Below are positions 34,818 to 41,906 of a stretch of DNA of 64,000 nt, piece by piece. The position numbers and the translations under genes were made by a program. Each line of letters begins with the position of its first letter. Positions within the stretch are counted from its first letter, which is position 1. The notes below the pieces were generated by a model. The model was given only the letters and a program-made list of their open reading frames with translations. It was not told where the DNA came from and did no database searches. Origin of the DNA: Sediminibacterium sp. KACHI17 (GTDB taxonomy: Bacteria > Bacteroidota > Bacteroidia > Chitinophagales > Chitinophagaceae); NCBI RefSeq assembly GCF_040362915.1, contig NZ_AP029612.1, positions 2,542,001 to 2,606,000 of the forward strand. The letters run 5' to 3'.

Positions 34818-37145
34818 TTATCTGTTTGAAGTGATCACAATCTTAGTAGCAATGCGTTCTTGACCAGAATCATCTCTGATCAATACTAAATACACGCCAC
34901 TAGCCACTTTAGCTCCGAGATAATTTCTTCCATCCCAAATTGCTTGTCCACCTAAGGATCTTGTTTGATAGACAAGTCTCCCATTCAGTTCTGTGATCTT
35001 TACCAATGCTTTATCTACCAAACCTCTTATGGCAATGGTACCATTGAAAGAGGGTGGAACAGGATTGGGGAATACCAATACCTTGCTTTGAGTTTCAACA
35101 GGAGTAGTGGCAGTACTTCTAAAGCTGCATAAACCTTCAAAAGTAGCGATGAACAATTCGCCGTTGACAGGATCGATGCTTAATTTTCGAACATCATTAC
35201 TTAAGAGGGGACTATTTTCTGCTGTAAATCGATATATCACTTTCTCTCCATTCGAAGAGAGCAGCCATAAACCATTTCGAGTGCCTACCCATTTTCTGTT
35301 AGCGCCATCAACTGCCATACATTGTACAACTTCATCACGAAACAATAATCCGGCAAAGCGATCTTGTTGTACGATGGGTTGAATGGCTTCACATCCTGCA
35401 GGAGTAAATGCTGATTCAGGACAACGAATGATACCGATTCCTCTATCTGTTCCCACCCATATTGATCCATCTCTGTCTTTTACAATACTGTATACATTAG
35501 AAGAAGGCAGATTACCATTTCCGGCACCTTGTCTGTAATATTTCCATCGGTCATCGGCAATATTATCAATGTCATTACCCGGGTTGAAACAAAATAGTCC
35601 ATTGCCCTTCGGACTCATGGCCCATATCTGGTCAAGATCGTCAGTGATCAATTGTGATAGTGCATTTTCTGTATGCGTAAATGGAATGGAGAATGATTTC
35701 CAACTATTGTCTCTCTTGCGAACACTCAAGTTTTGTGCGGCACCATAATTGGCTACCCAAAGTTGTTGTTTACTGTCAAAGGCCAATCCACTCACGCGAA
35801 TACTTCCCGGATCGCCGATGGCAGCTCTTAAACTACTATTGTTTTGTTTGAAAATACTGAACTGATCATTTGCAAAACGAACCAGTCCCCCTCCATAACT
35901 TCCTGCCCAAACAGCTTCATCTCGGGGATCGATAGTGATCGTAATAAAATCCAATACTGAATCCAGTACGGGAGTGTTGAAGAAACTTTTTGAACTCCAT
36001 GTATTTTCTTTCAGCAGATAAAAACCATCTCTGTTGAATAAATAATTCCAGGCGTCATTAACACTACCTGCAGCAGCAACAGTGATGTTTCCGTTGGAAG
36101 CCAATTCACCGGTAGCAACACCGGGAGGTCCGTTAGGGATGAATCTATCGGTTGCGTTACCTGTCCTGGATAAACCACCAAAACGATCTGCCACCCAGAT
36201 CTGCCCATTATCAACTATTGCAGATAATGGAAATGAAATGATACCACCAGCACTGATCGTTCTTGCGATCGTTCCGTTGGTGTTCATGATCAATACCCGC
36301 GCACTTCCGGAAGCCGTTCGTTGACAAACGGTGAATTGATTACCTGCAGGTGTGATAGATACAATGGGCCAATTGACATCGTGGTATAATAGCTGCCAGT
36401 TCGTACCATTTTGAATGAATAGGGAATCTCCTTTTTGAACAATGATATTATTATTTGCTACGATCACGTTTTTGATACTACCTGAAGGAAGTTGATGGTT
36501 GCCGCTAACTAGAATCCAGTTCCTGTAGTTAGCAGGATTATTGATGTTTGCACTCGTTGTTTTTAATCCATCTTCTGTAGCTGCATAAAATAGATTGTTG
36601 TGGATCGTAAATGCATTCACTTTAACCTGAGTGCCATTGTTGCCAATGATCCAGGTATCCTTGATTTCTCTGCGTGTAAGATCGGCGACGATGATGCCGA
36701 GTCCACTAGACAAATATGCCAGTCCATCTTGACAAAAAATTTGTTGGATAGATTTATCACCGGCAATGGTGCTACTGGCAATATCACGGATGTTGTATAC
36801 AATACTTCCCTTGAGCAGATCGATATTGCTATTATTATAGGCGATGATCAATTGGCTAGTCGTAGCATCCCATCCGATACAACGAACACCAATATCATTA
36901 AGCCCGGTTACTTTGGAATAGCGAGAGGGTTCATTTTTATCATCAATGGAAAATAAGGCCTTGGTGGCTGCACAATACAGTCGATCCCCTTTTATTACCT
37001 GAATGGTTTGCTGATAGTTCAGGTGTTCACGCCATTGTCCAATGGGAGGAACTTGCGCAGTAACGGTATCACAAATGAAGAGATAATTCATCAACCCAAT
37101 AACTAAGGGTAGTACTCTTTTATAAGTAAACAAGTGATCCTTCAT
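34818..37145 (-). CDS. porZ: PorZ-like T9SS component: beta-propeller protein with type A sorting domain
   Basis: 775 residues from the ATG at 37145 (a second ATG 6 bp upstream at 37151 is almost inside the likely promoter). Signal peptide to about residue 31, then two regions of two-component-regulator-type propeller repeats (PIGQWREHLNYQQTIQVIKG near the start; IWVGTDRGIGII and KWVGTRNGLWLLSSNG near 560-620) and a C-terminal type A T9SS domain (about 700-775: VFPNPVPPSFNG, LNGRLVYQ, ASGVYLVLI). This arrangement is that of PorZ, an outer-surface part of the T9SS attachment complex that processes cargo and supplies A-LPS in Porphyromonas. Other attachment-complex genes are not adjacent. Confidence 0.85.
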   Translation of the reverse strand: MKDHLFTYKRVLPLVIGLMNYLFICDTVTAQVPPIGQWREHLNYQQTIQVIKGDRLYCAATKALFSIDDKNEPSRYSKVTGLNDIGVRCIGWDATTSQLIIAYNNSNIDLLKGSIVYNIRDIASSTIAGDKSIQQIFCQDGLAYLSSGLGIIVADLTRREIKDTWIIGNNGTQVKVNAFTIHNNLFYAATEDGLKTTSANINNPANYRNWILVSGNHQLPSGSIKNVIVANNNIIVQKGDSLFIQNGTNWQLLYHDVNWPIVSITPAGNQFTVCQRTASGSARVLIMNTNGTIARTISAGGIISFPLSAIVDNGQIWVADRFGGLSRTGNATDRFIPNGPPGVATGELASNGNITVAAAGSVNDAWNYLFNRDGFYLLKENTWSSKSFFNTPVLDSVLDFITITIDPRDEAVWAGSYGGGLVRFANDQFSIFKQNNSSLRAAIGDPGSIRVSGLAFDSKQQLWVANYGAAQNLSVRKRDNSWKSFSIPFTHTENALSQLITDDLDQIWAMSPKGNGLFCFNPGNDIDNIADDRWKYYRQGAGNGNLPSSNVYSIVKDRDGSIWVGTDRGIGIIRCPESAFTPAGCEAIQPIVQQDRFAGLLFRDEVVQCMAVDGANRKWVGTRNGLWLLSSNGEKVIYRFTAENSPLLSNDVRKLSIDPVNGELFIATFEGLCSFRSTATTPVETQSKVLVFPNPVPPSFNGTIAIRGLVDKALVKITELNGRLVYQTRSLGGQAIWDGRNYLGAKVASGVYLVLIRDDSGQERIATKIVITSNR

Positions 37146-37274
37146 CTTCATAAGTAAAGTTACAGGATAAAAATATAGGTATTTCTACCACGAAGTTCTA
37201 TCATAAAAATCAGGTGTTTTTACGGATTTTATGGATGAGAAAGCAGTCTATTTTGGCGGTCTAAATGATACAAT

Positions 37275-37508
37275 ATGTCGACTAGAATTGCTATTGAGCA
37301 AATACGGAAGATCAATCAGCTGATCATTAAAAAGAATACAGGTAAACCGGCTGAAATGGCTGTTAAACTTGATTGTTCGCTTACTACCTTATTCACTTAT
37401 CTCGCGATGATGCGAACGATGGGAGCACCTATTCAGTATAATAAATTTAAGCAGACTTATTACTATGAGGAGGAGGGAAACTTTGTGATCGGGTTCGTTC
37501 CGAAATAA
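37275..37508 (+). CDS. Small winged-helix/HTH protein, candidate regulator of the bacteriocin-like cluster
   Basis: 77 residues. IEQIRKINQLIIKKNTGKPA then EMAVKLDCSLTTLFTYLAMM reads as a DeoR/HTH_11-like helix-turn-helix followed by a wing strand pair (QTYYYEEEGNFVIGFVPK). No enzymatic or membrane features. It is the first gene of a same-strand run leading into two double-glycine peptides and an exporter; the 143-bp gap to the first peptide carries a 16-bp palindrome. A role as local regulator is inferred from size, fold and position. TATTTTGG near 37250 is a possible -7 box. Confidence 0.8.
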   Translation: MSTRIAIEQIRKINQLIIKKNTGKPAEMAVKLDCSLTTLFTYLAMMRTMGAPIQYNKFKQTYYYEEEGNFVIGFVPK

Positions 37509-37562
37509 AGTTTTTTTCATACTCCGCATGTCTCGTATGAAGTGTGATTAGTTTAGCATCAG

Positions 37563-37578
37563 ATTCATGGCCATGAAT
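37563..37578. promoter_or_regulatory. 16-bp perfect palindrome upstream of the precursor peptides, candidate operator
   Basis: ATTCATGGCCATGAAT (37563-37578) is a perfect palindrome, 74 bp before the first peptide ATG. A second, looser inverted repeat TTCATAC/GTATGAA (37517-37523, 37535-37541) shares the TTCAT/ATGAA ends. Both lie between the HTH gene and the peptides, a suitable place for autoregulation of the cluster. The looser repeat could alternatively belong to the 3' end of the HTH transcript. Confidence 0.5.
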
Positions 37579-37651
37579 GGGAGTATTGTCGGTAAGCCTT
37601 GTATCTCGCGCAGGTACAGAAGACGCGATATTAAAAACTAAAACCATTGTT

Positions 37652-37843
37652 ATGAACAATCAAATTGTAGGACTGAAGCCCTTGTCAGAGCAAGAGCTCA
37701 TCAGTATTGAAGGTGGTGCTATTCCGTCTTGGTTGAAAAATTTCGGATGGGGTAGTCTAGTAATGGATGCCATAAAACACTGGGATGAGATCAAGCGAGA
37801 GTTCCGTAATGGATGGCATTTTCCTGAAAAACATAGTCATTAA
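37652..37843 (+). CDS. Double-glycine leader peptide, bacteriocin-like precursor 1
   Basis: 63 residues from ATG 37652 (an earlier in-frame ATG at 37577 would add 25 unrelated residues). Leader MNNQIVGLKPLSEQELISIE ends in Gly-Gly at 21-22; the LSEQEL-x-x-I-x-GG pattern is the C39-peptidase recognition type. The predicted mature peptide is 41 residues, cysteine-free and Trp-rich (four Trp), starting AIPSWLKNFGWGSLV, then a charged amphipathic stretch and a His-rich tail (EKHSH). Linked to a second precursor 18 bp downstream and to a C39 ABC exporter. Antimicrobial or signalling function is inference. Confidence 0.82.
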   Translation: MNNQIVGLKPLSEQELISIEGGAIPSWLKNFGWGSLVMDAIKHWDEIKREFRNGWHFPEKHSH

Positions 37844-37861
37844 CCTTTAAATCTAAAAACT

Positions 37862-38059
37862 ATGAAAAAGAAAAATCAAGCTTTAGAACATTCTTTTGAA
37901 TGTACTCCGCTTTCATTTAATGAGCTCACATCTATAGATGGCGGCAGTATTTATGGTGATTTGGCTTATTTATTTGGAGCAACATTAAGATGTTTTCGTG
38001 AGTTTACTAAAGGTGCTGTACAATACCAAGCATCTTTACCTCCAAGTCTTAAAAAATAA
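37862..38059 (+). CDS. Double-glycine leader peptide, bacteriocin-like precursor 2
   Basis: 65 residues. Leader of 28 residues with LSFNELTSIDGG at its end, the same spacing of hydrophobic and acidic residues as precursor 1. Predicted mature peptide of 37 residues starts SIYGDLAYLFGATLRCF, with a single cysteine in the core (Cys44 of the precursor), a basic-aromatic centre and a Pro-rich basic C-terminus. The two cores are unrelated in sequence, as in two-component peptide bacteriocins. A hairpin terminator follows 12 bp after the stop. Confidence 0.82.
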   Translation: MKKKNQALEHSFECTPLSFNELTSIDGGSIYGDLAYLFGATLRCFREFTKGAVQYQASLPPSLKK

Positions 38060-38071
38060 AGAACAGATCAA

Positions 38072-38096
38072 TGGTCTCGCTTTAGCGAGGCCATTT
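38072..38096 (+). terminator. Hairpin terminator after the precursor peptides
   Basis: TGGTCTCGC (38072-38080) pairs with GCGAGGCCA (38085-38093; one G-U) across TTTA, followed by TTTT-A. It sits between the peptide genes and the membrane/export genes, so it may act as a partial terminator that makes peptide mRNA more abundant than exporter mRNA. Confidence 0.75.
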
Positions 38097-38123
38097 TATA
38101 CTCTGCAACTAACAACCTGTATT

Positions 38124-38591
38124 ATGTCTATAATTGATAGAAAACTAAGTTGGGTAAATAAAATATCCATTCGTAAACTTATTTTGATAGCGTATTGCAT
38201 TAATCTTTCTACCGCTATTTTATTTGGTTATGTGCTATTTCCAGATGAGAATGCAAATCCTGATAATTTATCAATAGGTTTTTTCTTTATTGCTGGGGTA
38301 CTTGTGGGACCATTTCTTGAAACATGGTTGGTACAATACACCATAATGGAATATGGTTATAAGTGGACAAAAAAGTATTGGCCTGGCTTTGTACTGAGTA
38401 TTGTAGTTTTTTCTGCTTTACATCATTATTCAGTACCCTACATGCTCAAAACTCTTATTTCAGGAACAGTTTATACTTCTGTTTATTTTGTTTGTATGAT
38501 AAGAAAGTGGAATGGATTTTTATATACTTCATGTGTACATATGCTGTATAATTTTACAGTGCTGATCGTTAATTATTTTATTGATGCATAA
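38124..38591 (+). CDS. CPBP-like multi-pass membrane protein, candidate immunity protein
   Basis: 155 residues from ATG 38124 (an upstream in-frame start overlaps the second peptide and the terminator and is rejected). Several hydrophobic helices. GPFLETWLVQYTI near 58-70, FSALHHY near 95-101 and HMLYNFTVL near 139-147 correspond in order to the three motifs of the CPBP (Abi/CAAX-protease-like) family, but the first has Glu-Thr instead of Glu-Glu and no following Arg. Family members often give immunity to, or process, bacteriocins. Its last codons overlap the HlyD start by 8 bp. Confidence 0.75.
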   Translation: MSIIDRKLSWVNKISIRKLILIAYCINLSTAILFGYVLFPDENANPDNLSIGFFFIAGVLVGPFLETWLVQYTIMEYGYKWTKKYWPGFVLSIVVFSALHHYSVPYMLKTLISGTVYTSVYFVCMIRKWNGFLYTSCVHMLYNFTVLIVNYFIDA

Positions 38592-39762
38592 ACAATATGA
38601 TCAGTTGTTGGATATCAATCACAACATTCAATTTTACCTTTCAGGATTTTCTCCTTATACTAAACTCTTCTATTGGTCATTTATAGGCATCTTTCTGTGT
38701 AGCATTGGAATACTTCCATTTTGTTATGTAAACGTAATCACTAGAACTGAAGGAATCATTCGACCTTTTGAAGAACGTACCGTTGTTCGGAGCCTGGTCA
38801 GTGGAACTATTCAGTTCGTCTATTGCAAAGATGGGGGCAGGGTGAAGAAAGGCGATACTTTATTGATATTAGAACAACCTAATTATCAAGGACAAAAAAA
38901 GTATCTCACACAAAAGATTCTTCAATGTAAAGCAAGGATCAATGATTTGAAATTACTGACTCAGCATGAACCATGGAGTGATTCTAGTATCCTTCAGAAT
39001 CTGAAAACATCATTGTATCAATCGCAATACCTGCATTTCAAAGATCAGCTGCAGGAAAAAAACTTAATCAATAAAAAGCTGCAAAAAGACATGCGTTTAT
39101 ATGATCCTCTGGTTCGAGAAAAAATAATAGCGGCTAATGAGTTGGCTGATATCGGTTATCAGTTATTACAATCGTCTGCAGGATTTCAATCATATATCAG
39201 TCAACAGATCAGTCGTTGGGAGTCTGAGTTGCTAGAAGAACAAAAACAGTTGACTGATGCGGAAACTGAAAAGCGCAATCTGCTTATAACTACACAATCT
39301 TTTGTGATCAAGTCGCCAATCAGTGGAACGATACTCATACAAGATCCTTTATATGTTGGTAGTTCTATACAAGCTTCTTCCGAATTGTTATCAATTTCTC
39401 CAGAACACGATCTAATTGTTGAGTGCTGGATGCCACCAGCAGCATTGGTTACCCTATACCAGGATCAAAATGTAACCTATACCATTCCTGAGATTCGCAA
39501 TCAGATGTCAAGTGTTTTACAAGGAAAAGTGATCTCAATCGCAAAAGATTATACGCTGATCAATAACAGACCTATGTTCAAGGTTAGATGCAGTTTGAAC
39601 CAAAAGCAAGTTGAGTTAAAAAATGGATTTTCTTACTTGCTTGGCAAGGGTTTACTACTCGAAACAAGATTTTTACTTGCTAGGAAGAGTTGTTGGGAAC
39701 TACTTTACCAACAGTTGTATGATTGGTTCAATCCTGCTACACTTACTAAATCAACTGTATGA
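38584..39762 (+). CDS. HlyD-family membrane fusion (adaptor) protein of the peptide exporter
   Basis: 392 residues from ATG 38584 (the TTG at 38581 is less likely). Short cytoplasmic N-terminus, one membrane helix (about 28-50), then a periplasmic part with a biotinyl/lipoyl-like half (VSGTIQFVYCKDGGRVKKGDTLLIL near 72-95), a coiled coil (about 105-230), the second lipoyl half (SPISGTILIQDPLYVG near 247-262) and a beta domain. This is the adaptor of a type I-like bacteriocin export complex. Overlaps both neighbours (8 bp upstream, 4 bp ATGA downstream), so the three genes are tightly coupled. Confidence 0.9.
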   Translation: MHKQYDQLLDINHNIQFYLSGFSPYTKLFYWSFIGIFLCSIGILPFCYVNVITRTEGIIRPFEERTVVRSLVSGTIQFVYCKDGGRVKKGDTLLILEQPNYQGQKKYLTQKILQCKARINDLKLLTQHEPWSDSSILQNLKTSLYQSQYLHFKDQLQEKNLINKKLQKDMRLYDPLVREKIIAANELADIGYQLLQSSAGFQSYISQQISRWESELLEEQKQLTDAETEKRNLLITTQSFVIKSPISGTILIQDPLYVGSSIQASSELLSISPEHDLIVECWMPPAALVTLYQDQNVTYTIPEIRNQMSSVLQGKVISIAKDYTLINNRPMFKVRCSLNQKQVELKNGFSYLLGKGLLLETRFLLARKSCWELLYQQLYDWFNPATLTKSTV

Positions 39763-41906
39763 GTGTAAAAATGGTCTGTGTAAAACAGCGAGATGTTACA
39801 GATTGTGGAGCAGCCTGTTTAGTATCTATAGCAGCTAGTTATGGAACTAATTTTTCTGTGAGTAAGGTCAGACAAACAGCAGGTACAGATAAGTGCGGTA
39901 CCAGTATGTTAGGAATGGTAGAAGCAGCCACTAAAATGGGATTTAATGCCAAAGCTGTTCGAGCAGGCATAGAAGTTATCAGACAAATTCCACTGCCATC
40001 TATTGCACATGTGTTATTGGAAAATGGATTGCAGCATTTTGTCGTACTGTATAGTATCAAAAGAGAGCAATTGGTATACATGGACCCAGCGACGGGAACA
40101 CTGGTCAAAAGCAGGCATAGTGATTTCAGTAAAATATGGACAGGGGTATTGTTATTACTGGAACCATCCGGGTCGATCTTAATCGCTCATAAAACGAAAT
40201 CGACAAAGAAAAGGATCTATGATCTACTTACTGCCAATGGATCATTATTATTACAAGGTTTTATTGGAGCATTGGTATATACACTTTTAGGACTTTCACT
40301 GAGTATCTATATCCAAAAATTGGTAGATACCATTTTGGTGGATGGAGATTTGGGTCTCTTAAACTTGGTGAGTATCATGATGATATTTCTATTGTGTATT
40401 CAACAGTATACAGGAACGTTTAAGACCTTATTGGGGTTGCAGGTAGGACAACGAATGGATGCAACACTCATCAGCCATTATCTAAGACATTTATTAAAAC
40501 TTCCGCAATTCTTTTTTGATACAATGCGCAAGGGAGAAGTGTTGAGTCGCATCAATGATGCTGTCATGATCCGAAACTTTGTAAGTGATACTGTGATGCA
40601 AATTGTAGTGAACTTATTAATATTGATTTGCTCTTTTCTGGTTATGTTTTTGTATAGCATCAAACTAGCACTGATGATGCTCTTGTTACTGCCAATCTAT
40701 GGTATTTTATACTATTTAAGTAATAAAATCAATCGTTATTGGCAACGAAAACTGATGGAGAAGGGAGCGACGATGGAGACGGAGCTAGTTGGTACTTTGC
40801 AGGCATCTACAACCATCAAGCGTTTCGGACTTGAAGAAGTGATGATAGAAAAAAATGAATCTGGCCTGATCGCTTTATTACGTACAGTGTATGATACAGG
40901 CATCAGGAATATTGCTCTTTCTTCTGTTGCAGAATTTGTAACCAGATTTTTTACACTATTGATATTGTGGATCGGATCGATACTTGTCATCGAAAAGGCA
41001 CTTACCCCGGGTACATTACTTTCTTTTTATAGCATCATCGGATATTTCACCGGTCCGGTATTGGTATTGATTGGTACTACAAAAAGTTTTCAGGAAGCGA
41101 TGATCGCAGCAGATCGGTTATTTGAGATCATGGAATTGGAACCGGAAGAAGCTTCACAAGTAGGCCGTCTACCACAGTCTTTTAACGAAGGGGATATTGT
41201 ATTTGATCAGGTAGGCTTCAGGTATGGAAGCAGGCAAACGGTATTCAACGAGTTATCGTTTCAGATAACAGTAGGATCTTGTATTGGCATAGCCGGTGAA
41301 AGTGGATCAGGTAAATCCACACTATTACATCTTTTACTGCGCTTATATCCAATTCAGAAAGGTCATATATATATTGGTGGGGTTGATATTAATGACATAA
41401 GTCTTCCTGTATTACGCGAGAAGATCGCTGTTGTGCCACAAGACACTGATATACTTTCCGGAACCGTCTTGGAAAATATCTGTCTCAATAAAAATATAGT
41501 TATCGATGACGTGATACAACTTTGTCAACAAGTAGGACTGGATGATTTCATTCGCAGTTTACCGGAAGGATATCATACGGTTTTACAGGAGCAGGGGTCA
41601 GACCTATCCGGTGGACAAAAACAAAAGATAGGAATTGTGAGGGCGTTATACCGACGTCCATCGGTCTTATTACTGGATGAAGCAACGGCATCGTTGGATA
41701 CGATCAGTGAATCAGCAGTGCAGGAATGTTTACAATATTATCGCCGAAGAGGCGTAACGATCATGATTGTAGCACACCGATTAACCACACTTCAATTCTG
41801 TGATGAAATTTTAGTTTTACAAGACGGAAAACTAATTGAGAGAGGTTCACATGATGAGTTGATACAGCAACTCGGTCTATATGCAACCATGTGGGATCAG
41901 CGGTAA
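39759..41906 (+). CDS. Bacteriocin-type ABC exporter with C39 leader peptidase
   Basis: 715 residues, combining leader cleavage and export. The N-terminal C39 peptidase domain (1-135) has QRDVTDCGAACL with catalytic Cys16 and Gln10, His93 in LQHFVVLY and Asp109 in YMDPATG, so the protease is predicted active on Gly-Gly leaders. Six-helix transmembrane domain about 160-440. ATPase about 480-715 with Walker A GESGSGKST, signature LSGGQKQKIGIVRAL and Walker B SVLLLDEATASLD. Starts on ATGA overlap with the HlyD gene. The two upstream precursors are the obvious substrates. Ends 3 bp before the convergent response regulator. Confidence 0.95.
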   Translation: MSVKMVCVKQRDVTDCGAACLVSIAASYGTNFSVSKVRQTAGTDKCGTSMLGMVEAATKMGFNAKAVRAGIEVIRQIPLPSIAHVLLENGLQHFVVLYSIKREQLVYMDPATGTLVKSRHSDFSKIWTGVLLLLEPSGSILIAHKTKSTKKRIYDLLTANGSLLLQGFIGALVYTLLGLSLSIYIQKLVDTILVDGDLGLLNLVSIMMIFLLCIQQYTGTFKTLLGLQVGQRMDATLISHYLRHLLKLPQFFFDTMRKGEVLSRINDAVMIRNFVSDTVMQIVVNLLILICSFLVMFLYSIKLALMMLLLLPIYGILYYLSNKINRYWQRKLMEKGATMETELVGTLQASTTIKRFGLEEVMIEKNESGLIALLRTVYDTGIRNIALSSVAEFVTRFFTLLILWIGSILVIEKALTPGTLLSFYSIIGYFTGPVLVLIGTTKSFQEAMIAADRLFEIMELEPEEASQVGRLPQSFNEGDIVFDQVGFRYGSRQTVFNELSFQITVGSCIGIAGESGSGKSTLLHLLLRLYPIQKGHIYIGGVDINDISLPVLREKIAVVPQDTDILSGTVLENICLNKNIVIDDVIQLCQQVGLDDFIRSLPEGYHTVLQEQGSDLSGGQKQKIGIVRALYRRPSVLLLDEATASLDTISESAVQECLQYYRRRGVTIMIVAHRLTTLQFCDEILVLQDGKLIERGSHDELIQQLGLYATMWDQR

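What the first reader, a model, noticed from the sequence alone, without database searches (positions are those of the whole stretch)
37275..41906. Compact two-peptide bacteriocin-like system with a dedicated HTH protein
Seen: a 77-residue HTH protein, two unrelated short peptides each ending its leader in an acidic-residue/hydrophobic pattern plus Gly-Gly, a CPBP-like membrane protein, an HlyD adaptor and a C39-peptidase ABC exporter with an intact Cys16/His93/Asp109 triad. Known: C39 exporters cleave Gly-Gly leaders. Inference: the peptides are exported together as a two-component toxin or signal, with the CPBP-like protein as immunity. The mature sequences (41 and 37 residues) do not resemble any bacteriocin I know, and the pair could be a new type in this phylum.
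Basis: partly seen in the sequence, partly recalled or inferred. Interest (0 to 1): 0.75.

Follow-up and report, generated by a model that had tools for sequence, protein, structure and literature searches.

The report
Two-peptide bacteriocin-like cassette, RNA leader
A Bacteroidota bacterium carries a small gene set that probably makes, exports and protects itself against a two-part antibacterial peptide, and the stretch just before the first peptide gene looks like a conserved folded RNA element with no match in the RNA family library searched.

Summary
In detail: HTH gene, two GG-leader precursors (cores 41 and 37 aa), CPBP protein, HlyD adaptor and C39 ABC exporter with C16/H93/D109 lie as described. 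The cores are conserved with the exporter: in 16 of 147 genus genomes peptide 1 sits directly 5' of peptide 2, and in 15 of the 16 CPBP, HlyD and C39 follow; the 16th contig ends inside peptide 2. Peptide-1 cores and the one unsaturated peptide-2 comparison of the window group show purifying selection. Between two contigs with identical flanks the block from peptide-1 core to CPBP is replaced as one unit, as expected for toxin plus immunity. One genome lost peptide 1, and its peptide-2 core has drifted. The HTH protein is not dedicated. Beyond the finding: 37561-37635 is a candidate structured RNA; a commoner pseudoknot RNA precedes, among 32 non-seed hits read, 7 GG-peptide and 21 Sec/lipoprotein-like genes, with strong covariation and no Rfam match. 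Best reading: a two-peptide bacteriocin-like system; activity untested.

The parts
37275..37508 (+). 77-aa HTH protein (HTH_11-like, sub-threshold); companion at the porZ site, not a constant part of the cassette
37561..37635 (+). candidate structured RNA leader: Pa 37564-37568/37573-37577, Pb 37579-37581/37597-37599, Pc 37600-37605/37613-37618, Pd 37587-37591/37626-37630 (Pb and Pd interleaved), ending 16 nt before the pep1 start codon
37652..37843 (+). peptide 1 precursor: GG leader 37652-37717 (22 aa), core 37718-37840 (41 aa)
37862..38059 (+). peptide 2 precursor: GG leader 37862-37945 (28 aa), core 37946-38056 (37 aa), C-terminal YQxSLPPxLKK-like motif
38124..38591 (+). CPBP/Rce1-like membrane protein, proposed immunity
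   Evidence: PF02517 above cut-off; co-replaced with the cores in one genome pair
38581..39762 (+). HlyD-family adaptor (TTG 38581 per ORF tool; ATG at 38584)
39759..41906 (+). peptidase C39 ABC exporter, triad C16/H93/D109

Best explanation
A two-peptide bacteriocin-like cassette. Both precursors are recognised by their double-glycine leaders, cut after Gly-Gly by the C39 domain of the adjacent ABC exporter and sent out through HlyD and an outer-membrane channel encoded elsewhere. The two mature, probably helical peptides act together on close relatives; the CPBP membrane protein protects the producer. Shown by sequence: gene order, leaders, exporter domains and triad, conservation of the pair with the exporter, purifying selection, joint replacement of cores and CPBP in one genome pair. 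Inferred: cleavage, export, joint killing, immunity, the outer channel. The leader RNA may tune translation of peptide 1 (inferred from position and covariation only).
For: Peptide 1 directly 5' of peptide 2 in 16 of 147 genus genomes; CPBP, HlyD and C39 follow in 15 of the 16, the 16th being cut by its contig end. dN/dS 0.11-0.22 in three peptide-1 core comparisons and 0.14 in one peptide-2 core comparison, G111-G107; the two peptide-2 comparisons with the window are saturated. G132 versus G097: every 60-base bin 100% identical from -1800 through the first 60 bases of pep1, 43-70% from +60 to +1080 (pep1 core, pep2, CPBP, start of HlyD), then 100% in every bin to the last one at +4140; the control pair G097-G094 keeps 99% and 96% in the cores. 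G010: pep1 internal deletion (137 bases net); pep2 leader has 1 of 28 and core 13 of 37 codons nonsynonymous against G088 (dN/dS 0.11 and 0.56). Exporter orthologues elsewhere in the genus lie beside other GG peptides. CAAX-type proteins are named among the immunity genes of pneumococcal blp loci (PMC4860687, passages).
Against: No activity, cleavage or immunity data. Strict GxxxG is absent from both window peptides. Peptide 1 scores below the class IIb models (15.4 against 21.5; 15.2 against 37) and peptide 2 matches none. Net charge of the window cores is only +1 and +3. G010 keeps a lone peptide 2. Cores and CPBP do not always move together: G097 and G094 share 96-99% of the cores but only 71% of CPBP, less than HlyD at 91%. 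The swap rests on one pair of draft genomes, and such identity between two species representatives suggests misbinning or very recent transfer of the 14-kb G097 contig. The first CPBP motif is incomplete by eye (single E, no EExxxR; motif recalled).
Confidence: 0.7

Rival explanations
1. The two peptides are exported signals (pheromones) read by relatives; the cassette is a cell-cell communication unit.
For: Leaders resemble ComC/BlpC-type leaders and records name some homologues so. A response regulator and histidine kinase lie next door in the window. In G011 an ORF that reads like a sensor kinase lies about 1.2 kb downstream of the exporter (L031 12433-13875; by eye, not scanned).
Against: The window's regulator gene sits directly beside porZ in 9 of 15 other genus genomes checked, without a cassette. 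Regulator (98-99%) and kinase (95%) are far more conserved in G111 and G107 than the peptides, so they do not look like a matched receptor. The 10 readable pep1+pep2 cassettes away from porZ show no match to this regulator or kinase in the fetched flanks. Cores were swapped together with a CPBP membrane protein.
Confidence: 0.14
2. Two independent one-peptide bacteriocins that share exporter and immunity; order and adjacency are operon convenience.
For: G010 keeps peptide 2 without peptide 1; peptide-1-like genes occur with no peptide-2 match in G089 and G102; in G027 a single GG peptide was seen beside the exporter orthologue.
Against: 16 genomes keep both in fixed order; both cores are replaced together in G132/G097; the lone peptide 2 of G010 has a drifted core.
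Confidence: 0.12
3. Degenerate or inactive remnant, or chance GG motifs.
For: Only 16 of 147 genus genomes carry the pair.
Against: Purifying selection, 231 peptide-2 and 99 peptide-1 homologues at E <= 0.01, exporter triad and ATPase motifs intact.
Confidence: 0.04

Closest known systems
Class IIb two-peptide bacteriocins of Gram-positive bacteria (pneumococcal blp; lactococcin G and plantaricins recalled)
   Same: Two adjacent GG-leader peptides without modification genes in the cassette, C39 exporter plus accessory protein, membrane protein as likely immunity; blp loci also show leader recombination and CAAX-type immunity genes (PMC4860687, passages)
   Different: Peptide 1 below NCBIfam class IIb cut-offs, peptide 2 without a match; no strict GxxxG in the window peptides; HlyD adaptor of the Gram-negative kind; no dedicated signal-receptor genes shown
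Bacteroidetocins (Bacteroidota class IIa-like peptides)
   Same: Bacteroidota, GG leader, exporter with double-glycine peptidase domain, similar core length (PMC6671954, passages)
   Different: Bacteroidetocins have 15-16 aa leaders, at least two Cys, and most a thiol oxidoreductase gene; here leaders are 22 and 28 aa, the cores have 0 and 1 Cys, and none of the six cassette proteins scanned matches an oxidoreductase
Gram-negative GG-leader bacteriocins (Moraxella McbA-C; microcin V; HlyD/C39 make-up recalled)
   Same: Secreted bacteriocin with cognate immunity in a Gram-negative (PMC2761928, start of abstract in search listing)
   Different: Two partner peptides and a CPBP protein here; no sequence comparison was made
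Class II bacteriocin precursors mined across phyla by IIBacFinder
   Same: Candidates reported also in Bacteroidota (PMC12648078, passages of a commentary)
   Different: I could not check whether this pair is among those candidates
Rfam cis-regulatory RNA families
   Same: 5' leader position, pseudoknot
   Different: At gathering score only one tRNA in 17 distinct loci; permissive searches of three short stretches (window 37000-38200, L103, L109) gave only matches far below the curated scores

Membership tests
Class IIb two-peptide bacteriocin | two different GG-leader peptides encoded side by side | tested here: met
   16 of 147 genus genomes
Class IIb two-peptide bacteriocin | match to curated class IIb models | tested here: not met
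   peptide 1: TIGR03949 15.4 of 21.5 bits, NF038034 15.2 of 37; peptide 2: none
Class IIb two-peptide bacteriocin | GxxxG or GxxxG-like motif in both peptides (recalled criterion) | tested here: not met
   Window peptide 1 has neither; window peptide 2 has AYLFG and SLPPS; strict GxxxG in 7 of 10 pep1 and 1 of 9 pep2 sequences examined, window included
Class IIb two-peptide bacteriocin | C39 exporter with accessory protein | tested here: met
Class IIb two-peptide bacteriocin | one linked immunity protein | tested here: inconclusive
   CPBP-like gene linked in 15 of 15 readable cassettes, co-replaced in one pair, but 71% against 96-99% for the cores in another; protection untested
Class IIb two-peptide bacteriocin | complementary killing by the pair | not testable with these tools
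   needs peptides and indicator strains
Bacteroidetocin | 15-16 aa GG leader | tested here: not met
   leaders 22 and 28 aa; definition from PMC6671954
Bacteroidetocin | at least two cysteines in the mature peptide | tested here: not met
   0 and 1 Cys in the window cores (sequences)
Bacteroidetocin | linked thiol oxidoreductase (most members) | tested here: not met
   none among the six cassette proteins scanned
Peptidase C39 exporter (PCAT) | C39 domain with Cys/His/Asp plus ABC membrane and ATPase domains | tested here: met
CPBP/Rce1-like family | PF02517 above gathering score | tested here: met
   27.9 against 22.4 bits

The most novel reading that the evidence does not exclude
GG-peptide mRNAs of Chitinophagaceae carry a previously uncatalogued class of pseudoknotted leader RNA (window type and the commoner P3-P4-P5 type), placed mostly 14-23 nt before the start codon, which controls translation of a regulon of exported small peptides and lipoproteins, so that bacteriocin-like peptides and envelope proteins answer to one RNA-sensed cue.
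Probability: 0.45. Interest if true: 0.78.

Novelty: new variant of a known kind. Interest (0 to 1): 0.6.

Why it matters
It gives a defined, testable two-peptide candidate in a Gram-negative phylum, with natural variants that suggest which parts belong together (cores with CPBP) and a natural loss of one partner. If the leader RNA is real and regulatory, it would tie secreted bacteriocin-like peptides and envelope proteins in Chitinophagaceae to a new RNA switch, open to direct reporter tests.

Tried and rejected
A GG-leader pattern that was one residue too short missed the known peptides and was corrected. The long in-frame ORF of peptide 1 from 37577 was rejected as the start. 'HTH marks GG-peptide loci' was tested over the order: strict GG pattern in 7 of 30 HTH loci against 6 of 23 longer control loci, and HlyD/C39 similarity in 4 of 28 against 0 of 15 and 0 of 18; not established. 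That the window RNA belongs to the P3-P4-P5 family was tested with model R3, filters off: best window score 6 bits, inside the HTH gene; the likeness is of placement and topology only. The Pb+Pd pseudoknot alone on the unfitted six-row alignment is weak: 1 pair changed on both sides, 28 of 500 shuffles reach the covariation score; hairpin Pc carries most of the signal. RNAalifold on a MAFFT alignment of 14 mixed leaders gave no structure. AlphaFold2 of peptide 1 is low confidence (mean pLDDT 61); peptide 2 gives one long helix, residues 30-58 (mean pLDDT 75); no fold search was run. PDB profile searches with the peptides gave no credible relative. Paper searches: with all terms for Bacteroidetes, riboswitch and double-glycine, or structured RNA, Bacteroidetes, pseudoknot and bacteriocin, 0 papers; Sediminibacterium with bacteriocin, 34 papers, 10 listed, none read; two general RNA-discovery papers listed and not read. 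On re-checking this report I lowered two odds: best explanation 0.72 to 0.70 (the G097-G094 CPBP result and the G011 kinase-like ORF had been left out) and the novel case 0.50 to 0.45 (7 of the 14 GG targets are model seeds).
Full report
WHAT IS THERE. Reading the + strand from 37275: HTH gene, peptide 1, peptide 2, CPBP protein, HlyD, C39 exporter, ending at 41906. Pfam: Peptidase_C39, ABC membrane, ABC_tran; HlyD_3; Rce1-like above its cut-off; HTH_11 below its cut-off; nothing for the peptides. NCBIfam gives only sub-threshold class IIb and bacteriocin-leader hits for peptide 1 and none for peptide 2. Exporter residues Q10, C16, H93, D109 and the ATPase motifs are in place. The window lies in G000 (3.14 Mb, one contig). 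A named near relative with the same locus is Sediminibacterium sp. Gen4 (exporter 79% identical); its contig length equals that of G111:C52, so L049 and L096 are probably one genome and were not counted twice.

CONSERVATION OF THE PAIR. Profiles of 4 peptide-2 and 3 peptide-1 sequences were run on 147 genus genomes. At E <= 0.01 peptide 2 matched in 20 of 147 and peptide 1 in 23 of 147. In 16 the two lie side by side, peptide 1 first: G000, G111, G107, G011, G094, G097, G093, G132, G082, G083, G119, G106, G060, G114, G134, G088. G033 has a weak, diverged pair with no orthologous exporter in the fetched stretch. The other hits are single, weak or partial. In 15 of the 16 CPBP, HlyD and C39 genes follow; G082 ends inside peptide 2, and G083 is cut within C39. 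G122 has a diverged version. Exporter orthologues in G027, G031, G102, G120 and a second locus of G088 lie beside other GG peptides. Wider: 231 peptide-2 homologues (120 listed) and 99 peptide-1 homologues at E <= 0.01, the latter including Pedobacter and Flavobacterium sequences. Some records already say 'ComC/BlpC family leader-containing pheromone/bacteriocin' or 'bacteriocin class II family protein'.

SELECTION AND NATURAL EXPERIMENTS. Peptide-1 core dN/dS is 0.19, 0.22 and 0.11 in three comparisons, peptide-2 core 0.14 in G111-G107; the two peptide-2 comparisons with the window are saturated. G132 and G097 show a block exchange: 60-base bins identical upstream and through the first 60 bases of pep1, 43-70% from there through pep2 and CPBP into the start of HlyD, then 100% again. 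This is what exchange of a toxin with its immunity gene would look like. Caveats: one pair of draft genomes; G097's stretch is a 14-kb contig whose identity to another species representative may mean misbinning; and in G097-G094 the cores are 96-99% alike while CPBP is 71% and HlyD 91%, so CPBP can also diverge on its own. In G010 an internal deletion (137 bases net) removes nearly all of peptide 1, and the peptide-2 core has 13 of 37 codons nonsynonymous against G088, its leader 1 of 28.

THE SITE AND THE HTH GENE. Of 15 genus genomes checked at porZ, 9 have the response-regulator gene within about 140 bases of porZ, 2 have about 1 kb or more between them, 1 (G084) has the HTH gene there without cassette, and 3 show no regulator gene in the flank. 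So HTH plus cassette looks like an insertion here, seen in the window, G111, G107, G088, G106 and, without peptide 1, G010. The 10 other readable cassettes lie away from porZ and show no HTH in the fetched flanks. The regulator and kinase next door belong to the site rather than to the cassette. In G011 a different, kinase-like ORF lies about 1.2 kb downstream of the exporter (not scanned).

THE LEADER RNA. Stretches before peptide 1 proved conserved. Two sets were separated. (a) Window type, 6 loci: 19 proposed pairs, 96.4% of cells paired, 5 pairs changed on both sides, slid controls at most 47.7%. A model from these six matched 7 of 147 genomes: the six and one weak new place in G087 (E 0.0015), which ends 16 nt before the start codon of an unrelated GG peptide, the window's own spacing. 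With it 93.9% of cells are paired and 11 pairs changed on both sides, but that alignment is fitted to the model and the structure came from these sequences; Pb+Pd alone is weak on the unfitted alignment. (b) P3-P4-P5 type: 7 seed loci, all chosen because they precede GG peptides. The model matched 36 of 147 genus genomes, not the window's own; a rebuilt model matched 6 of 298 genomes of the order, 4 of them outside the genus. On 30 distinct rows the 14 pairs give 87.7% paired and 33 cells changed on both sides (0 of 500 shuffles reach this; slid controls at most 13). P5, which was not in the model, gives 72.8% paired and 21 such cells against at most 9 when slid; its outermost pair fails in 20 of 29 rows. 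Related rows inflate such counts. The two searches list 56 distinct places; I read the downstream gene at 39. A rule put 15 of 39 before GG peptides (L141, with GTG for GG, is doubtful, so 14), 21 before Sec/lipoprotein-like proteins and 3 unresolved; in 35 of 39 the start codon lies 14-23 nt downstream. Without the 7 seeds: 7 GG, 21 Sec/lipoprotein-like, 1 doubtful and 3 unresolved of 32. Several of the 32 are near-copies of each other. The loose Sec rule also passed 68 of 196 longer ORFs from exporter loci. At gathering score Rfam gave one tRNA in 17 distinct loci.

MECHANISM. Translate, cut at GG by C39, export, act jointly, protect by CPBP. Steps after gene content are inferred. The RNA probably acts at translation start; the cue is unknown.

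VERDICT. Works like a two-peptide class II bacteriocin system, but is not filed as class IIb because model match and motif tests were not met. New variant of a known kind, with a candidate new leader RNA as the most novel lead.

Noticed in passing
L115-L145 and L182-L189: Pseudoknot leader RNA (P3-P4-P5) before small lipoproteins and secreted proteins as well as GG peptides; possible regulon.
   Followed up: partly
L113/L116, L127, L143, L115, L035, L036, L106, L109: A further upstream hairpin (GGACGNTGGTNG..ACGA..) precedes the pseudoknot or its variant in these loci.
   Followed up: no
L031, L099-L103 before peptide 1: A third leader variant (CCCGAGTTCACGGTAGCGGGACTTCTGCGTGACGCTGAA) scores only 15-17 bits with R3 and ends in a similar P4/P5 part.
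   Followed up: partly
window 37549-37556: TAGTTTAG, conserved in G111 and G107, resembles a Bacteroidota -7 promoter element (recalled) just 5' of the RNA element, so the transcript may begin with the RNA.
   Followed up: no
L095 8734-9229 (G011): A distant HTH relative lies next to another GG-leader peptide gene.
   Followed up: partly
L194 (G095) and L197 (G027): About 1 kb or more of other DNA lies between the regulator gene and porZ, so this site may take in varied inserts.
   Followed up: no
L152 (G087): Two further GG-leader precursors in tandem, with cores unlike those of the window, behind a weak window-type RNA match.
   Followed up: partly
L031 12433-13875 (G011): ORF that reads like a sensor histidine kinase about 1.2 kb downstream of the cassette's exporter.
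   Followed up: no
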